Shown: positions 1,724-8,624 of the stretch, one piece after another
How the letters are laid out: every line of letters begins with the position of its first letter
Position numbering within the stretch: position 1 is the stretch's first letter
Position numbers and translations under genes: made by a program
Notes under the pieces: generated by a model
Seen by the model: the letters and a program-made list of their open reading frames with translations, nothing else
Databases searched by the model: none
Told to the model about the DNA's origin: nothing
Assembly: GCA_013331625.1 (NCBI GenBank)
Contig: DUGC01000074.1
Coordinates: 1-12,420, forward strand
DNA length: 12,420 nucleotides
Source: Candidatus Iainarchaeum sp.
Lineage (GTDB): Archaea > Iainarchaeota > Iainarchaeia > Iainarchaeales > Iainarchaeaceae
Direction: 5' to 3'

Positions 1724-4700
1724 TCATTTGACGTATTCGCTCCACGGCATTATTTCCAGTTCCGTGATTTTCTTTTTAGTGATTGCGCGCACGAATGCGG
1801 AAGCGATCTGCAGGTTCGTAATTAAAGGCACGTTATAATCGATCGCAAAGCGCCGCACATCATACTTTGGGTCGGTTGCGATCTGCTGGAACGGGTCAGG
1901 CACGATGATTGCAAGATCTATTTTTCCCTTCTGGAACAGACCGAGCACGTTTGGCTTTTTGTTTTCATGCATTTTATATATCATTTTGCACCTGACCCTG
2001 TTTTCCTGCAAAAACTGGCAGGTGTGCTCTGTTGCATAAATAATGTACCCTGCTGCACAAAGGCCTGAGAGTTCCGGAAGCATTTTTTCCTTTGCGCTAT
2101 CCCCCGTAATGGAGACAAGGATGCTTTTTTGAGGGATGTTATAGCCGGTGCTCAGGAGCGCTTTGAGGAATGCATCCTCAAAATCACTCCCTATGCATGC
2201 AACTTCACCCGTGGATGCCATTTCAACGCCCGAAACAGGGTCGGCGCCTTTAAGGCGCGAGAAGGAGAACTGCGGGGCCTTGACACCCACATGGTCGAGC
2301 TCTAGGAAATTGTGCTTCCCGCATTCAATTTTCTTTCCCATTATCGCTTTTGTCGCAATATCCAAAAAGTTGGTCCCGGTGACTTTTGAGACAAATGGCA
2401 TCGAGCGCGAGGCGCGCAAATTGCACTCAATCACTTTTAATTCGTTGTTTTTTGCAAGGAACTGGATATTGAACGGGCCGCAGATCCCGAGCTCTTTTGC
2501 AAGCGAGGATGCGATCATTTTCATTTTGCGCACGGTTTCAAGGTAGGTTTTTTGCGGGGGCAGGACCATTGTGGCATCTCCCGAATGCACCCCTGCATTT
2601 TCAATATGTTCTGTCACTGCAAGCGCTGTAATGTTCCCCTTGTCTGCAACCGCATCTATCTCAACTTCGCGGCAATTCAGTATGAACTTGCTGATGACTA
2701 CCGGAAATTCCTTGCTCAGTGATGTTGCATTTTCAAGGTATTGCCCGAGTTCCCTGCCATTAAATGCAACTGCCATAGCCTGCCCGCTAAGGACATATGA
2801 AGGCCTGACAAGCACAGGATATCCTGCCGAATCGGCAAACTCCTTTGCCCTCTCCATTGTGGTGAGTTCCTTCCATTCGGGCTGCGGGATTCCCAATGTA
2901 TCGCAAAGGCTGCTGAACTTGTGTCGGTCCTCTGCCTTGTCAATGCTCAATGGAGATGTCCCGAGCACTTTCAGGCCTGCATTGTGGCATTTTAGCGCTA
3001 AATTGTTTGGTATCTGCCCGCCCATGGAGACTATAAGGCCAAGTGGCTGTTCTAACTCGTAAATGTCAGAAACTGTTTCAAAGCTAAGCTCATCAAAATA
3101 GAGCTTGTCGCATTCATCATAATCTGTTGACACCGTTTCGGGGTTGTAATTCACCATTATCGTGTTGTAGCCAAGGGAGCGCAGCGTTTTCACTCCCGAA
3201 ACGCAGCAATAATCAAATTCGACGCTGCTCCCGATCTTGTACGCCCCCGAACCGAGCATAATTACAGAATTTTCCTCCCCGAATGTTATATCATGGCTTG
3301 AAGCATTATAAGTTAGGTAAAGATAGTTTGTTTTTGCGGGGTATTCTGCAGCCAGCGTGTCGATCTGCTTTACAAACGGGGTAATCTGCAGGGATTTCCT
3401 TTTCTCCCTCACTGCCTGTTCATCAATTTTTGCATCTTTGCCACCTTCCAATACCATTGAAATCTGCTTGTCCGAATACCCCTGCTTTTTCGCTCTGAGC
3501 AGTAGCTCCGGCGCCATGCCTTCAAGTGTTGATGCGGCAATTTCTTTTTTTGTTTCAATGATGTTTTTTATGCGCTGCAAAAACCACCTGTCGATTTTTG
3601 ATGCATTGAATATTTTATTCAGGGAAACCCCCTTCTCAATCGCTTCAGCGACCGCAAAAATCCTTTTATCTGTCGGATACCTCACCTCATGCGCGAGCTT
3701 TGTGAAATAAACCTTGTTCCCCACAACCCCATACATCCCTATATGGAGCATCCTTATCGCTTTTTGCAATGCTTCCTCAAATGTCCTGCCGATTGCCATC
3801 ACTTCGCCGACGCTTTTCATTTCCGATCCTATGCGCTGCGAGACATTCCTGAACTTCTGCAGATCCCAGCGCGGGATCTTCACGACCACATAATCAAGCG
3901 CAGGCTCGAATGCTGCTTTTGTTACTTTTGTGATGGAATTTTGCAGTTCCAAAAGGCTGTACCCCAGCCCGAGCTTTGCCGCAACAAATGCAAGCGGGTA
4001 TCCTGTCGCTTTTGAGGCAAGCGCAGAGCTCCTCGAGAGCCTTGCATTCACTTCTATAACCCTGTACTCTTTGCTTTTGGGGTCGAGGGCGTACTGGATG
4101 TTGCACTCCCCGATAATCCGCAGATGCCTTATCACTTTTATCGAGATTTCGCGCAGCATGTGGTACTCGTCATTATTGAGCGTCTGCGAGGGAGCAACCA
4201 CTATGCTCTCGCCGGTGTGGATCCCGAGCGGGTCGAAGTTTTCCATGTTGCAAACAGTAATGCAATTGTCATGGGCATCCCTTACCACTTCATACTCTAT
4301 TTCCTTCCAGCCTGCAAGGCACTCTTCTATGAGGAGCTGGGGCACTGTCTTGAACGCTTTCTGGCAAAGGTCTTTGAGTTCAGGTTCACTCTTCACGATC
4401 CCGCTTCCCTTTCCCCCCAAGGCAAAGCCCGCGCGCACCATCACAGGATAGCCGATCCTTTTTGCAGCTGCAAGGGCTGGTTTTGACGATGTCACTGCAA
4501 TGGATTTCGGCACATTGACATTGATTTTCCTCAGCTCGATATTGAATAATTCCCTGTCCTCTGTAAGTTCAATGCTCCTGACCGGTGTCCCAAGTGGCTT
4601 TACCCCGTACTTTTGCAAAACTCCGCTCTTTTCAAGGCTAAGGCCGCAATTGAGGGCCGTCTGGCCCCCGAATGAGAGCGCAATCGCATCGGGATTTTCC

Positions 4701-4972
4701 TTTTTTATCACTTCCTCGACAAAATGGGGCGTGACAGGAAGGAAATACACCTCGTCAGCAAAGCCTTTTGAAGTCTGGACAGTAGCAATGTTGGGGTTTA
4801 TGACAATGACCTTTATGCCCTCTTCCTTTAGCGCCTTGATTGCCTGCGAACCGGAGTAGTCGAATAGGCGGCAGTAATAGCATTAATCATATAGCCATAC
4901 ACTGCTTTCGCCGGCCTGTCCGATTTGCAAGGCCCCTGAGCCTAAAAGCAAAACTTTTTTCGGTTTATCCAT
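1724..4972 (-). CDS. carB: Carbamoyl-phosphate synthase large subunit, interrupted by a 42-base BHB intron
   Basis: CarB makes carbamoyl phosphate from bicarbonate, ATP and ammonia passed from CarA, for pyrimidine and arginine synthesis. Exon 1 is 4972-4907 (22 residues, MDKPKKVLLLGSG...GQAGE); exon 2 is 4864-1724, joined at GE|FDYSG. The product is 1068 residues, close to the 1073 of E. coli. Domain order: ATP-grasp half 1 (GGQTALN; RAGFALGGKGSGIV; EVNARLSRSSALASKATG), an oligomerisation region, ATP-grasp half 2 (GSGAYKIGSSVEFDY at about 560-574; VRPSYVLSGQAM; ECNLRASRSMPFVSK), and the C-terminal MGS-type allosteric domain from about residue 930. The start is fixed by a perfect GGAGGTGA at 4989-4982, nine bases before the ATG. 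The orfB stop overlaps this start, implying coupled translation. Read without splicing, TAA at 4885-4883 ends the protein after 29 residues. Family identity is certain; the splicing is predicted. Confidence 0.93.
4865..4906 (-). other. Predicted archaeal BHB intron in carB pre-mRNA (42 nt)
   Basis: On the - strand the parts run: exon-side helix strand GGCG (4912-4909), bulge AAA (4908-4906), GCAGT (4905-4901), GT, ATGGC (4898-4894), a 12-base loop, GCTAT (4881-4877), T, ACTGC (4875-4871), CGCC (4870-4867), bulge TAT (4866-4864). GGCG pairs with CGCC (four GC pairs), GCAGT with ACTGC, and ATGGC with GCTAT (one G-U). Cutting between bulge bases 2 and 3 removes exactly 4906-4865 and joins GGCGAA to TTCGAC, giving G-E-F-D-Y. 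The insert keeps the frame but contains TAA at 4885-4883. No helix adjoins the exon side of the 3' bulge, so this is the relaxed HBh' form. A distant CGGA/TCCG pairing (4922-4919 with 4855-4852) is possible but weak. The likely processing enzymes are the tRNA splicing endonuclease and RtcB ligase, neither seen in this window. Confidence 0.85.
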
Positions 4973-5306
4973 GCAACTGATTCACCTCCATTAATTCCAA
5001 AACCATTGAGTTATTAAGCGATTTCTGACGGCCGCTTGCGTAACTCCTCGCCAATATTTTTTCCAGAGTATCCAATTTAGTGCCGCTGCTAAGATATATT
5101 TCATGATGAAAACTTTTAATGCTTTGGAGTGTAATTGAGGTTCTGACAATTTGCGCCCAGAATTTCATTTTACCTTCAGGCGTCATTTTCATTCTGCGGC
5201 CAGCAATGGAGTTCCGGACGTCATGATATTTCCTGCCAAAATGCGAAGCATTTTTGATACTGCGCAAGGCCAGACTCTCTGCAGATTTAGGTTTTTCGCG
5301 CATCAT
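4965..5306 (-). CDS. Unrecognised 113-aa protein in the car operon (orfB)
   Basis: I do not recognise a family. It is a basic, soluble-looking protein with no membrane segment. Residues 42-58 (TPEGKMKFWAQIVRTSI) match residues 39-55 of the preceding orfA product (SENGRVKFFCRVVRQSI), with further weak similarity on both sides, so the two look like diverged paralogues. The start is at one of two adjacent ATGs (5306 or 5303), behind AGTGATG in the nine-base gap after orfA. Its TAA (4967-4965) overlaps the carB start and its last codons contain the carB ribosome site, which implies cotranscription and coupled translation. Base composition is intermediate, lower in GC than carB by eye. A role in carbamoyl phosphate synthesis is possible only by position. 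Confidence 0.72.
   Translation of the reverse strand: MMREKPKSAESLALRSIKNASHFGRKYHDVRNSIAGRRMKMTPEGKMKFWAQIVRTSITLQSIKSFHHEIYLSSGTKLDTLEKILARSYASGRQKSLNNSMVLELMEVNQLHG
4982..4989 (-). promoter_or_regulatory. Strong Shine-Dalgarno of carB
   Basis: GGAGGTGA on the - strand is a full match to the archaeal anti-SD, with nine bases before the ATG at 4972. It lies inside the 3' end of orfB. It identifies the true carB start upstream of the intron; the in-frame GTG at 4750, at residue 61 of the spliced protein, has no such signal. Confidence 0.85.
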
Positions 5307-5315
5307 TTCATCACT

Positions 5316-5822
5316 TCACACTGAATTTTCTGATATTAATTTTATTGCAGCTCTAAGAGTCCGCCCTATAACAGCAAGATCTCCTTTTGACTGGTGTTTA
5401 AGCATAATAGATGCCGCATCTTGGTCGTCTTCTGTTTTAAAACCTCTGTTATTTTTGACAAATTTCTTAACCACATTAGTAACTTCGTCAAACTGGGCAT
5501 CGACATTTTTAAACTGACTTTCTAAAAATGCGGTTGCCAAGCTTCGGTCTCCATGAAATTTTGACAAAGCAAAGTTTGCGATTTTATTTCGTGCGATAAC
5601 AAAACTAAGATTATGTTTTTTATGGTAAACCAAGATATCTGAGATTTCCCTGTTTCTTATAGATTGTCTCACAACTCTGCAAAAAAACTTTACTCGCCCA
5701 TTCTCAGACATTGTATAACGTGATAATGCCCCATAATTTGCCGATGATGGATATTTTCGGGCATATCTAAAAGCCAACTCAACATATTTTCTGGCCAACT
5801 TTGTATTAGCTGGAACTTTCAT
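5316..5822 (-). CDS. Unrecognised 168-aa protein in the car operon (orfA)
   Basis: I do not recognise a family. The ATG overlaps the carA stop as ATGA (5822-5819) and AAGGTG lies just upstream inside carA, so translation is coupled. The protein is lysine/arginine-rich, mostly helical in appearance and without membrane segments. Residues 42-56 (GRVKFFCRVVRQSIR) share a G-x(7)-R-x-(V/L)-R-x-(S/A)-I pattern with residues 147-161 (GDLAVIGRTLRAAIK), suggesting an internal duplication. The first copy also matches orfB. Hand counts on full 60-base lines inside the gene give about 25-43% GC, against about 50-63% in sampled carA and carB lines. That suggests later acquisition or relaxed codon choice. 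Function is unknown; a nucleic-acid or enzyme-binding role would be speculation. Confidence 0.75.
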   Translation of the reverse strand: MKVPANTKLARKYVELAFRYARKYPSSANYGALSRYTMSENGRVKFFCRVVRQSIRNREISDILVYHKKHNLSFVIARNKIANFALSKFHGDRSLATAFLESQFKNVDAQFDEVTNVVKKFVKNNRGFKTEDDQDAASIMLKHQSKGDLAVIGRTLRAAIKLISENSV

Positions 5823-6898
5823 TTCAGCACCTTCAGGAACTCATCAAACAAGAATCCCGTGTCCACCGGCCCCGGGTTTGCCTCAGGGTGGAACTGCACT
5901 GAAAAGAACGGCTTTGTCTTGTGCCTTATGCCCTCGTTGGTGTCGTCATTCGCGTTCCGCATCCACGGCTCCCAGCCTTTCTGCAGGGTTTTCTCGTTTA
6001 CCGCAAAGCCGTGGTTCTGGCTCGTGATAAAACACCTTTTTTCCCCCACAATATAGGCCGGCTGGTTCTGGCCGCGGTGGCCATACTTGAGCTTGTAGGT
6101 GTCTGCCCCTGAAGCGAGCGCGAGGAGCTGGTTTCCAAGGCAGATGCCAAAAATCGGCCTTTCATCCTCAAGTGCCTTGCGGATATTTGAAATGGTGGCG
6201 GTGCACATCTTCGGGTCCCCGGGGCCGTTGCTCACCATTAAGCCATCAAAATCGAATCTGTTTTCTGCCGAAAGGAAATCATAATCCCAAGGTACCCTTA
6301 TGACCTGCACTCCGCGCTTCAAAAGCGAGTGGATGATGTTATTTTTCGCCCCGCAATCGATCAGCAGAACCTTCTTTTGCCCCTTGCCATACACTATCGG
6401 CTTGTGGATGCTGACATCTGCGGCAAGGTTCGCTGTATTTGGATCGTAGCGCTGTGCATCCTGTTCTTCAACCACTATTTTTCCCAGCATTGTCCCCTTT
6501 TCACGCAGTATTTTTGTCAAGGCGCGCACGTCAATTCCTGCAATTGCAGGTATTTTCTCCTCATTTAGCCACTGCCCAAGCGATTTTGCTGCGCTATAGT
6601 GGGAATAATTGCCTGAATAATAATTCACCACAAGGCCCTGCACCTGTATTTTGTGCGATTCAAAATTTGCGATGAGGCCGTTCTCGACAATTTTTTCGGG
6701 AACACCGTAGTTCCCGGCCAAAGGGTACGTGAGGCAGAGGACCTGCCCTGCATAGCTCGGGTCGGTGAGGCTCTCATTGCAGCCCACCATGCCTGTGTTG
6801 AATACAACTTCGCCTGCAGCAGGGCGCGGATAGCCAAATGAATACCCTTCAAAGCTTGTCCCGTCATCGAGAACAAGCCTTGCTTTCGGGGAGTTCAT
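5819..6898 (-). CDS. carA: Carbamoyl-phosphate synthase small subunit (glutaminase)
   Basis: CarA hydrolyses glutamine and channels ammonia to CarB. The protein is 359 residues from MNSPKARLVLDDG. The N-terminal CPSase_sm domain (residues 1 to about 170) includes GEVVFNTGMVG and TYPLAGNYG. The class I amidotransferase domain carries the nucleophile C253 in GICLGNQLLALASG, LKYGHRGQNQP, the ITSQNHGFAV segment, and H337-P-E339 in VQFHPEANPGP, completing the Cys-His-Glu triad. The start at 6898 is chosen because GGGGTG lies six bases upstream and the conserved domain begins directly after it. An in-frame ATG at 6976 would add 26 non-conserved Cys/Pro-rich residues. It is the first gene of the operon carA-orfA-orfB-carB and has a TATA box upstream. 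Confidence 0.95.
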   Translation of the reverse strand: MNSPKARLVLDDGTSFEGYSFGYPRPAAGEVVFNTGMVGCNESLTDPSYAGQVLCLTYPLAGNYGVPEKIVENGLIANFESHKIQVQGLVVNYYSGNYSHYSAAKSLGQWLNEEKIPAIAGIDVRALTKILREKGTMLGKIVVEEQDAQRYDPNTANLAADVSIHKPIVYGKGQKKVLLIDCGAKNNIIHSLLKRGVQVIRVPWDYDFLSAENRFDFDGLMVSNGPGDPKMCTATISNIRKALEDERPIFGICLGNQLLALASGADTYKLKYGHRGQNQPAYIVGEKRCFITSQNHGFAVNEKTLQKGWEPWMRNANDDTNEGIRHKTKPFFSVQFHPEANPGPVDTGFLFDEFLKVLK

Positions 6899-7013
6899 GA
6901 CGCGCACCCCTCTAAATTGGAAAGGACAAGTGAGTGGGTGGAATTGGGGGGCGCAAGGCCTGCAATAAAAAAGCAAAAATGTTTCATCTAAAAAAAAGGT
7001 TATGCTGGAGAAT

Positions 7014-7023
7014 GTTTATAAGG
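7014..7023 (-). promoter_or_regulatory. TATA box of the car operon
   Basis: The - strand reads CCTTATAAAC, a good archaeal TATA element. The transcript would start near 6992, giving a leader of about 90 bases before the carA ATG. The leader is very T-rich at first (a T8 run at 6987-6980 and T6 at 6972-6967), then C-rich. Early T-runs can act as archaeal attenuation or termination sites, which is inference. Confidence 0.6.
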
Positions 7024-7091
7024 CTTTGGCGCACTGTTCCATATCTTCTGGGGGCATAGGCAAACGTAGCCAGAAAAGCTTCCGCCATATT

Positions 7092-8624
7092 TTATTTTCC
7101 CTTGCACAGCATGCGGTTTAGCATCTTTTCAGTTGCCTTTATTGCCGCCATCACCTGATCTGAGTCTATGCCGGTTGTCACGATCTGCTTCCCGCTGCAC
7201 TTCCAGGTTATTGTGGTCTCCACAATCGCATCTGTCTTCCCTCCGGGGGGGATCCTCACTTCATAATCGACAAGTTCGGGCAGTTCGACCCCTGCATCTT
7301 TTGCCGCCTGCACAAGCGCATTCATGAAAGCGTCATAGCAGCCATTCCCCTGCGCGCTCTTGCTTATCTGCTTTCCATTGAGAATTATTGAAATCTGCGC
7401 AAAAGGCTGTCCCTTGAGCGAGGATGATATTTTGCACTCAGTGATTTTCACACGCCCTTCAAGCGGGGTGTTCAGCACATCCGCAATTATAAACGGCAAA
7501 TCCTCTGATGTCACGGTCTCTTTCTTGTCGCCGAGCATGACCACACGTTCCAGTATAATCTTTTTTTGTTCGGGGGTGAGATCCATTTTGAGTGCTGCAA
7601 GGTTCTGCTCGAGACTTGCCCTGCCGCTCAGTTTCCCAAGGGCATATTCCCTTTTGCGTCCAAAGCGCTCGGCAGTGAGCGGGTTCACATAAAGGTTGCC
7701 TTTCGCGTCCCCGTCAGCATGGATCCCGGCGGTCTGGGTGAATACATCCTCGCCCACGATCGGCTTGTTCGATGGGATTTTCTTGCCCGAAAACCTCTCC
7801 AAAAGCACGCTGATTTTCTGGAGGGCGGCCTCATCGGCACTGCATTTCCTCCCAGCCTTGTCATTGACCGCGGCGATGACTTCTGCAAGGGCCGCATTCC
7901 CCGTCCTCTCCCCAAGGCCGTTTACTGTGCAGTGCAGCCCGCCAATTCCTTCCTGCGCTGCAATAAGGCTGTTGGCGGTTGCAAGCCCATAATCATTGTG
8001 CGCGTGGAAATCGCATTTTTCGAGCGGTATTTTCCTTGCCATTTCCTTTAAATAATTCTGCAGCTGCAACGGGGCCAGTATTCCCAAAGTATCCGGCAAA
8101 AGCAGCCTTTGGAGCCTTGTTGCCTTTAATGATTCCACAAAATCAAATACATATTGGGGCGAATCCTTCATGCCATTGCTCCAGTCCTCAAGATAAACAT
8201 TGACTGCGATGCCATTGTGGCTTGCATAATCCATTACCGCTGCGACATCGGAAAAATGCTGCTGCGGGGTTTTTCGCAGCTGGTGCTCGCAGTGCTTTTG
8301 CGAGCCCTTTGCCAAAATGGATGTTGTGCGGCAGCCCGCTTCATTTGCCCAGTCAATGCTTTCCCTGTTGACAAATGAGAGCACTTCGACCCTTTCAAGC
8401 AGCCCTTCGCCCCCAGCCCACTTTGTAATGGCCTTTACTGTCTCAAGCTCTCCCCTGCTCACGCGCGCCGAGGCAACCTCAATGCGGTCAACATTGACTT
8501 CACCCAGAAGCATTTTTGCAATAGAGAGCTTTTCCTGCAAAGCAAAAGAAATGCCGCGCGTCTGCTCGCCATCGCGCAAAGTGGTATCCATAATCTGGAT
8601 GTGATCAGTCATGTTGCCACCCAT
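7092..8624 (-). CDS. leuA: Alpha-isopropylmalate / citramalate synthase family enzyme (LeuA-like)
   Basis: A 510-residue acyl-CoA:2-oxoacid condensing enzyme of the DRE-TIM (HMGL-like) family. It shows DTTLRDGEQ at 13-21, metal ligands in CDFHAHNDYG (H207, H209), NGLGERTGNA at 235-244, GIHADG at 300-305, and a C-terminal LeuA-type allosteric domain from about 385 to 510. Family members make 2-isopropylmalate, (R)-citramalate or homocitrate; the presence of the regulatory domain favours the first two. The N-terminal signature RIEVASARVSRGE resembles a LeuA-like clade I associate with Bacteroidetes as well as some archaea (from memory), so substrate choice is uncertain and the symbol is by family. 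Two starts are possible: 8624 (GGTGA at 8633-8629) and 8612 (GGTGG at 8621-8617). It is 468 bases upstream of carA's TATA-bearing spacer boundary in the same direction, but carA has its own promoter. Confidence 0.85.
   Translation of the reverse strand: MGGNMTDHIQIMDTTLRDGEQTRGISFALQEKLSIAKMLLGEVNVDRIEVASARVSRGELETVKAITKWAGGEGLLERVEVLSFVNRESIDWANEAGCRTTSILAKGSQKHCEHQLRKTPQQHFSDVAAVMDYASHNGIAVNVYLEDWSNGMKDSPQYVFDFVESLKATRLQRLLLPDTLGILAPLQLQNYLKEMARKIPLEKCDFHAHNDYGLATANSLIAAQEGIGGLHCTVNGLGERTGNAALAEVIAAVNDKAGRKCSADEAALQKISVLLERFSGKKIPSNKPIVGEDVFTQTAGIHADGDAKGNLYVNPLTAERFGRKREYALGKLSGRASLEQNLAALKMDLTPEQKKIILERVVMLGDKKETVTSEDLPFIIADVLNTPLEGRVKITECKISSSLKGQPFAQISIILNGKQISKSAQGNGCYDAFMNALVQAAKDAGVELPELVDYEVRIPPGGKTDAIVETTITWKCSGKQIVTTGIDSDQVMAAIKATEKMLNRMLCKGK

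What the first reader, a model, noticed from the sequence alone, without database searches (positions are those of the whole stretch)
4861..4924. A 42-nt bulge-helix-bulge intron in the carB coding sequence
Seen: carB's N-terminus (ATG 4972 with a perfect GGAGGTGA) and its body are in the same frame but separated by 42 bases containing TAA. The edges form 4 GC pairs (GGCG/CGCC) flanked by 3-base bulges AAA and TAT on opposite strands, with a 5+5-bp intron hairpin inside. Known: archaeal splicing endonuclease cuts between bulge bases 2 and 3. Doing so here removes exactly the 42 bases and restores GQAGEFDYSG, the invariant CarB motif, and a normal 1068-residue length. As an internal control, CarB's second half carries the parallel sequence GSGAYKIGSSVEFDY with no insert. 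Introns in archaeal protein genes are very rare (cbf5 in Crenarchaeota is the main case I know); I know of none in carB.
Basis: partly seen in the sequence, partly recalled or inferred. Interest (0 to 1): 0.95.

Follow-up and report, generated by a model that had tools for sequence, protein, structure and literature searches.

The report
Tiny homing introns in archaeal carB
In an uncultured archaeon the essential enzyme gene carB is interrupted by 42 bases that are predicted to be cut out of the RNA by the tRNA-splicing enzymes, and 24 of 124 related carB genes carry such tiny inserts at one or both of two exact spots, mostly beside a homing-endonuclease-like gene (in this genome only its remnant) that likely spreads them.

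Summary
carB (minus strand) is interrupted by 42 nt (4906-4865, in-frame TAA) with a canonical bulge-helix-bulge (BHB) core; removing it gives a full 1068-aa CarB. It is not a one-off: in 124 readable carB genes of two archaeal groups (linked to a Diapherotrites and a Woesearchaeota record), 22 have a 17-42 nt insert at exactly this site and 7 have one at a second site 23 nt upstream (24 genomes). 17 of the 29 inserts are not multiples of three; the BHB cut rule restores the conserved residues in all 29. Exon flanks of carriers pair far better than those of non-carriers. EndA was found in 22 and RtcB in 23 of the 24 genomes. rtcB itself carries 11 such introns (12-41 nt) in 7 genomes. A free-standing homing-endonuclease-type gene (LAGLIDADG or HNH_repeat; in the window a remnant) lies directly upstream of carB in 15 of 22 tested carriers but only 1, possibly 2, of 44 non-carriers. 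My reading: mobile BHB mini-introns in mRNAs, probably spread by collaborative homing. No RNA evidence was available; splicing and homing are inferred.

The parts
4907..4972 (-). carB exon 1 (ATG 4972, 22 codons, ends ...GQAGE)
   Evidence: GGAGGTGA at 4989-4982
4865..4906 (-). 42-nt BHB intron with in-frame TAA
   Evidence: insert at the same site in 22 of 124 carB genes
1724..4864 (-). carB exon 2 (FDYSG... to stop)
4909..4912 (-). central helix H, 5' strand (GGCG)
4867..4870 (-). central helix H, 3' strand (CGCC)
4906..4908 (-). 5' bulge AA^A, predicted cut between 4907 and 4906
4864..4866 (-). 3' bulge TA^T, predicted cut between 4865 and 4864
4977..5126 (-). likely remnant of the C-terminal part of a LAGLIDADG homing endonuclease (inside ORF 4965-5306)
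   Evidence: 43% over 49 aa to residues 333-380 of the G005 ORF, E=1.6e-5 in a search of the window; the LAGLIDADG part itself was not found; no Pfam match of its own
5819..6976 (-). carA (upstream partner gene of carB)
   Evidence: TIGR01368, 445 bits

Best explanation
The 42 bases at 4906-4865 are most likely a bulge-helix-bulge intron of the carB messenger RNA, predicted to be cut out by the splicing endonuclease EndA and the exons joined by the ligase RtcB, and it belongs to a family of mini-introns that are probably mobile. Shown by sequence: recurrence at two exact positions of carB and at two spots of rtcB, the BHB geometry, frame restoration, presence of EndA and RtcB genes, exon-exon complementarity, patchy distribution, and the adjacency of a homing-endonuclease-type gene. 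Inferred: (1) EndA cuts between bulge bases 2 and 3 and RtcB ligates; (2) the neighbouring free-standing endonuclease cuts intron-less carB near the insertion point, repair copies endonuclease gene plus intron, and the intron protects the carrier from the enzyme (collaborative homing); (3) the endonuclease gene decays after fixation, the state in the window, while the intron stays because only a precise deletion would be tolerated; (4) the stop codon in nearly every intron ends translation of unspliced RNA.
For: Same-site inserts in 7 of 28 carB sites of the window's phylum set and 15 of 96 in the Woesearchaeota-record order; second site (GSGA^[L/I]KIG) in 7 of 96, five genes carrying both (counts rechecked). 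At least 3 of 4 central pairs plus inner helix of 3 bp or more in 27 of 29, against 0.25 expected from shuffled introns; at site A the BHB cut rule, not the alignment, yields GSGA[L/I]KIG in 7 of 7. The central helix changes in step (GGCG/CGCC to GGUG/CACC in L184). In-frame stop in 28 of 29 against 12.8 expected. Exon-exon pairing -18.3 vs -10.9 kcal/mol (7 carriers, 20 non-carriers, p=6e-4) and -16.4 vs -9.8 (15, 73, p=5e-8); Ser codon TCC in 18 of 22 carriers vs 14 of 93 non-carriers. EndA in 22 of 24 carriers (one a partial match, G354), RtcB in 23 of 24. Homing-endonuclease gene or remnant upstream: 15 of 22 carriers vs 1 of 44 non-carriers (p=9e-9), or 2 of 44 counting a doubtful case (p=7e-8); Pfam LAGLIDADG_3 and HNH_repeat over cut-off in the six carrier ORFs scanned. 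Mobility: site B needs at least 16 changes on a CarB tree of 73 rows; the G001 and G003 introns are identical over 40 of 40 nt though third codon positions of their carB agree at only 48%.
Against: No RNA or protein data. EndA was not found in two carriers (G087, G191) and RtcB not in one (G361), all drafts. The outer helix lies beyond an internal loop, so the motif is not a textbook hBHBh', which the Haloferax enzyme is described as strictly needing (PMC7714728, passages); what the enzyme of this lineage accepts is unknown. Seven of 22 carriers have no endonuclease gene upstream; G222 has one without an intron and G008 possibly too. The endonuclease queries came from carriers, so other families beside non-carriers could be missed; a Pfam check of 20 of the 22 other upstream ORFs of non-carriers found a homing family only in G222. 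The p-values ignore relatedness. Conserved flanks could reflect helix constraint rather than co-conversion.
Confidence: 0.88

Rival explanations
1. BHB intron as above, but immobile: inherited from an old common ancestor and lost many times, the endonuclease gene being an unrelated neighbour.
For: The same two sites in two archaeal groups; repeated loss of the cbf5 intron is published (PMC2738675, abstract and part of Results).
Against: 40 of 40 identical intron bases in carB genes whose third codon positions agree at only 48%; near-identical 20-21 nt introns in distant carB genes (L174, L182, L183, L187); endonuclease gene in 15 of 22 carriers vs 1 or 2 of 44 non-carriers.
Confidence: 0.2
2. 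Translational bypassing (the ribosome hops over a hairpin, as recalled for phage T4 gene 60 and mitochondrial byp elements) instead of RNA splicing.
For: Short hairpin inserts inside a coding sequence, nearly all holding a stop.
Against: Take-off and landing codons match in 0 of 22 site-B inserts; site-A inserts split a codon; the 4-bp helix between two 3-nt bulges and the exon pairing fit EndA, not hopping; EndA and RtcB genes are present.
Confidence: 0.03
3. Pseudogene, sequencing error or assembly artefact.
For: Nearly all genomes used are drafts; no raw reads were at hand.
Against: Independent occurrence in 24 genomes at two exact sites with the same geometry; the rest of carB is intact and conserved in the window.
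Confidence: 0.01

Closest known systems
cbf5 pre-mRNA intron of Crenarchaeota (PMC2738675)
   Same: BHB intron in an archaeal protein gene, cut between bulge bases 2 and 3, gained and lost
   Different: Other gene, other archaea; cbf5 structures are mostly unconventional BHBs cut by a hetero-oligomeric enzyme, here canonical cores with a single-domain EndA; two sites per gene, lengths down to 17 nt in carB and 12 nt in rtcB, endonuclease neighbour
Archaeal tRNA BHB introns
   Same: 4-bp helix between two 3-nt bulges; EndA and RtcB
   Different: In mRNA, with exon pairing supplied by coding sequence
Collaborative homing of F-CphI and the psbA group I intron (PMC6083498, passages)
   Same: Free-standing homing endonuclease gene beside an intron-bearing gene; there the intron blocks self-cleavage
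   Different: Group I ribozyme in a phage there; protein-spliced BHB mini-intron in archaea here; cleavage not tested here
BHB intron in the 5' UTR of Haloferax HVO_1309 (PMC7714728, passages)
   Same: EndA substrate in an mRNA
   Different: Non-coding leader, no reading frame to restore
Archaeal rRNA introns with LAGLIDADG genes (recalled, no call)
   Same: BHB intron mobilised by a LAGLIDADG enzyme
   Different: There the gene lies inside the intron, here outside it

Membership tests
EndA-dependent BHB introns | 4-bp helix flanked by two 3-nt bulges on opposite strands (definition as in PMC6379350, passages) | tested here: met
   4 of 4 pairs in the window and in 19 of 22 site-B introns (3 of 4 in the other three); site A 4 of 4 in one, 3 of 4 in six
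EndA-dependent BHB introns | cut between bulge bases 2 and 3 restores the gene product | tested here: met
   29 of 29 carB introns; 11 of 11 rtcB introns
Strict hBHBh' subtype | outer helix h directly next to the bulge | tested here: not met
   first outer pair absent in the window; the exon helix lies beyond an internal loop. Relaxed BHBs are known (PMC6379350, passages)
EndA-dependent BHB introns | EndA and RtcB encoded in the genome | tested here: met
   (170 aa, positions 3-169 match 1a79, E=1.6e-25); rtcB in G000
EndA-dependent BHB introns | spliced RNA observed | not testable with these tools
   no RNA data held
Collaborative homing pair | free-standing homing endonuclease gene beside the intron-bearing gene, missing beside intron-less ones | tested here: met
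   15 of 22 vs 1 (possibly 2) of 44; in the window only a remnant
Collaborative homing pair | enzyme cuts the intron-less allele at the insertion site and not the intron-bearing one | not testable with these tools
   needs purified enzyme
Group I / group II introns | ribozyme core recognised by Rfam | tested here: not met
   no Rfam match in the window at the gathering threshold; inserts of 17-42 nt are too short
Translational bypass elements | matching take-off and landing codons | tested here: not met
   0 of 22

The most novel reading that the evidence does not exclude
A new class of mobile genetic element: BHB mini-introns of 12-42 nt in archaeal protein genes, spliced by the tRNA enzymes and spread by free-standing LAGLIDADG or HNH_repeat homing endonucleases next door, with the intron serving as the immunity tag; they have even entered rtcB, so that the ligase must splice its own messenger.
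Probability: 0.6. Interest if true: 0.95.

Novelty: new variant of a known kind. Interest (0 to 1): 0.92.

Why it matters
A 2020 paper still counted cbf5 as the only other BHB mRNA intron reported in archaea besides its own 5' UTR case (PMC7714728, passages). Here two genes carry them in 25 draft genomes, some introns as short as 12-17 nt, so annotation is likely to misread such genes as broken or truncated. They show a plausible route by which protein-spliced introns spread through coding genes, and the rtcB introns suggest a self-dependent splicing loop. Each step can be tested with recombinant EndA, RtcB and endonuclease.

Tried and rejected
A de novo BHB-plus-ORF scan of 227.8 kb of the window's own genome (19 of 123 contigs, three of them cut at 20 kb) gave 375 candidates; the top ones looked like chance hits, mostly at gene ends; it recovered the carB and rtcB introns and I saw no other convincing one, but only the listed top rows were looked at and none was checked against profiles. 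Class I aminoacyl-tRNA synthetases: no clear break in the Ile, Leu and Val rows (one LeuRS-type gene in G197, C77, lies in two frames and was not resolved); metG looked split, but a splice-aware alignment of six loci showed no BHB-type insert in the body of the gene, only noise near the ends, plus a stop in L314 and 1-nt slips in L315. ARAGORN found two tRNAs in 19 loci of the own genome. Rfam found nothing in the window and one chance-level hit in the endonuclease loci. The 80-locus search of genome contigs gave mostly bacterial carB; of 79 readable sites only L033 has the insert.

Rows dropped before counts: of 99 loci tried in the second group, L176 and L188 (no site found) and L177 (contig ends at the site) are not in the 96. 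9 of the 124 sites did not match the motif used, leaving 115; the upstream test used the 64 of these with at least 600 nt, plus L161 and L168 from the nine, added (66). L187 (418 nt upstream, endonuclease match) and L189 (280 nt, none) are carriers outside that test. The tree used 73 rows with at least 400 aa. rtcB: the splice-aware alignment was run on 20 loci of 18 carriers and on G045; it is noisy on divergent or intein-bearing copies; five other carriers match unbroken and were not aligned; so no frequency is claimed. Library searches for earlier reports; I saw titles and abstract starts, and none named a carB or rtcB intron in archaea; preprints and most subscription journals are not held.

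Full report
Observation. On the minus strand of the window, carB starts at ATG 4972 behind GGAGGTGA (4989-4982), runs 22 codons to ...GQAGE, is interrupted by 42 nt (4906-4865) with an in-frame TAA, and continues as FDYSG... to 1724. Joined, it encodes 1068 aa; the TIGR01369 score rises from 1391.7 to 1510.4 bits, profile positions 5-1052 of 1052. The insert has a GGCG/CGCC helix between bulges AA^A and TA^T and a 6-bp inner helix; 4 of 200 shuffles of the region fold at least as well.

Host. The window is contig C115 of a 1.43-Mb, 86.75%-complete draft archaeal genome, G000. G022, in the same order, shares carB DNA with the record of a Diapherotrites archaeon, RIFCSPLOWO2_01_FULL_58_19. G000 has an EndA of 170 aa that matches the M. 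jannaschii enzyme 1a79 at positions 3-169 (E=1.6e-25) and an rtcB gene. That it forms a homotetramer is my inference from the single domain.

Recurrence. I examined carB in 87 genomes of the phylum (31 with a match) and in 352 genomes of the order of G087, the genome of a Woesearchaeota record (130 with a match, not all of them carB). Of 28 readable sites in the first set 7 have an insert at exactly E^F (33, 34, 34, 40, 40, 42, 42 nt); of 96 in the second, 15 do (17-32 nt) and 7 have an insert at a second site, GSGA^[L/I]KIG, 23 nt upstream (29-36 nt), five genes carrying both. In all, 24 of 124 genes. G006, G004 and G002 (same family, 74-78% identity) have the empty site. Twelve of 22 site-B and 5 of 7 site-A inserts are not multiples of three.

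Geometry. At site B all 22 inserts show at least 3 of 4 central pairs (19 show four), and the BHB cut falls on E^F without any shift. At site A the BHB cut shifts the boundary by 1-2 nt from the alignment and thereby yields Leu or Ile, the residue usual in the intron-less genes, in 7 of 7. Shuffled introns would give 0.25 cases with at least 3 central and 3 inner pairs; 27 of 29 have them. The helix changes in step in L184 (GGUG/CACC). The coding sequence on either side pairs with itself: carriers have exon-exon duplex energies of -18.3 and -16.4 kcal/mol in the two groups against -10.9 and -9.8 in non-carriers, largely through synonymous choices (Ser TCC 18 of 22 vs 14 of 93; Gly GGC before the site 20 of 22 vs 22 of 93). 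Relatedness is not corrected for. 28 of 29 introns hold a stop in the exon-1 frame where shuffles give 12.8.

Machinery. EndA (PF01974) was found in 22 of the 24 carriers (a partial match in G354; none in G087 and G191), RtcB (PF01139) in 23 (none in G361). rtcB is itself split: 41 nt in G000 and G045 at DAHWG^YG, 29-33 nt at or near the same spot in G359, G368, G208, G197 and G201, and a second insert of 30, 32, 12 and 12 nt next to GGIG in G359, G368, G197 and G201. That is 11 introns in 7 genomes, 10 with all four central pairs. The 12-nt ones have hardly an inner helix, only a loop closed by GAGG/CCUU. In the phylum 79 of 87 genomes have an rtcB match, and rows split by a stop appear only in G000 and G045. 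Class I aminoacyl-tRNA synthetases gave no such insert, with one unresolved frame change in G197.

Mobility. On a CarB tree of 73 rows the site-B insert needs at least 16 changes and site A at least 5. The introns of G001 and G003, two genera, are identical over 40 of 40 nt while the third codon positions of their carB agree at 48%; identity is 100% in the 30 nt before and 93% in the 30 nt after the intron and lower beyond. Directly upstream of carB exon 1 lies a free-standing gene of homing-endonuclease type: LAGLIDADG type in 9 genomes, HNH_repeat type with a nuclease-like tail (read by eye) in 5, and in G000 only a C-terminal remnant at 5126-4977. Pfam confirms three of each; the rest rest on similarity to these. 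Counting sites with at least 600 nt upstream, 15 of 22 carriers have it against 1 of 44 non-carriers (p=9e-9). Because the queries came from carriers, I listed the other upstream ORFs of the 44 non-carriers: 39 have carA within 1.7 kb, 22 have another ORF of 110 aa or more. Pfam on 20 of these 22 found a homing family only in G222, already counted; a 479-aa ORF in G008 has two LAGLIDADG-like motifs by eye but no Pfam match. Counting G008 too gives 2 of 44, p=7e-8. G222 reads GQGGE instead of the common GQAGE, so its target may be altered (inference). LAGLIDADG neighbours go with site B in 9 of 9; HNH_repeat neighbours go with site A in 3 of 5 (4 of 6 with the truncated G354), so the two enzymes may prefer different sites (inference).

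Mechanism proposed. EndA cuts at 4907/4906 and 4865/4864 and RtcB joins the exons (inferred). The neighbouring enzyme would cut intron-less carB in the GSGA...FDYSG stretch, and repair from a carrier would copy gene, exon 1 and intron together; the intron would then block further cutting. This is the logic of collaborative homing described for F-CphI and psbA (PMC6083498, passages), with a protein-spliced intron in place of a ribozyme. [quoted passage not shown]

Known or new. The cbf5 intron of Crenarchaeota is the precedent (PMC2738675, abstract and part of Results); a 2020 paper knew of no additional BHB mRNA intron than cbf5 besides its own 5' UTR case (PMC7714728, passages). Ten library searches (listed under tried and rejected) showed no carB or rtcB intron in archaea in their titles and abstract starts. 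I therefore file it as a new variant of a known kind. Splicing has not been seen, and the outer helix is displaced by an internal loop, which the strict Haloferax enzyme would not be expected to accept; this is the main open point.

Noticed in passing
L290 (G000:C102), about 5313-8182: rtcB of the window's own genome has, besides the 41-nt intron, a 1515-nt in-frame insert at GFDI^NCG (intein-like), 27 codons downstream; an insert of the same length at the same place is in L281 (G036), whose rtcB start is unbroken.
   Followed up: partly
L336 (G359) and L335 (G363): The endonuclease ORF runs in frame through carB exon 1 and ends at the stop codon inside the intron, so unspliced RNA would encode the endonuclease with a CarB tail.
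   Followed up: no
L333, L336, L335, L341, L332, L331, L340, L334, upstream of the endonuclease start: Similar leaders with TATA-like boxes, and in some hairpins, precede both unrelated endonuclease types; no Rfam match worth naming.
   Followed up: partly
window 5316-5822 and 4965-5306: Two small ORFs between carA and carB share a 52-aa similar stretch (35%); no Pfam or NCBIfam match.
   Followed up: partly
L274 and L276 (rtcB of G197 and G201): 12-nt introns with hardly an inner helix, closed by GAGG/CCUU, the shortest seen here.
   Followed up: partly
L185 (G201 carB): Besides both introns there is a disturbed stretch with a 1-nt frame slip near residue 102 of the query; possibly an assembly error.
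   Followed up: no
L161 (G222): HNH_repeat endonuclease gene upstream of carB but no intron; site reads GSGALSIGQGGEFDYSG.
   Followed up: partly
L131 (G008), ORF ending 62 nt before the end of carB exon 1: 479-aa ORF upstream of intron-less carB with two LAGLIDADG-like motifs by eye and no Pfam match.
   Followed up: partly
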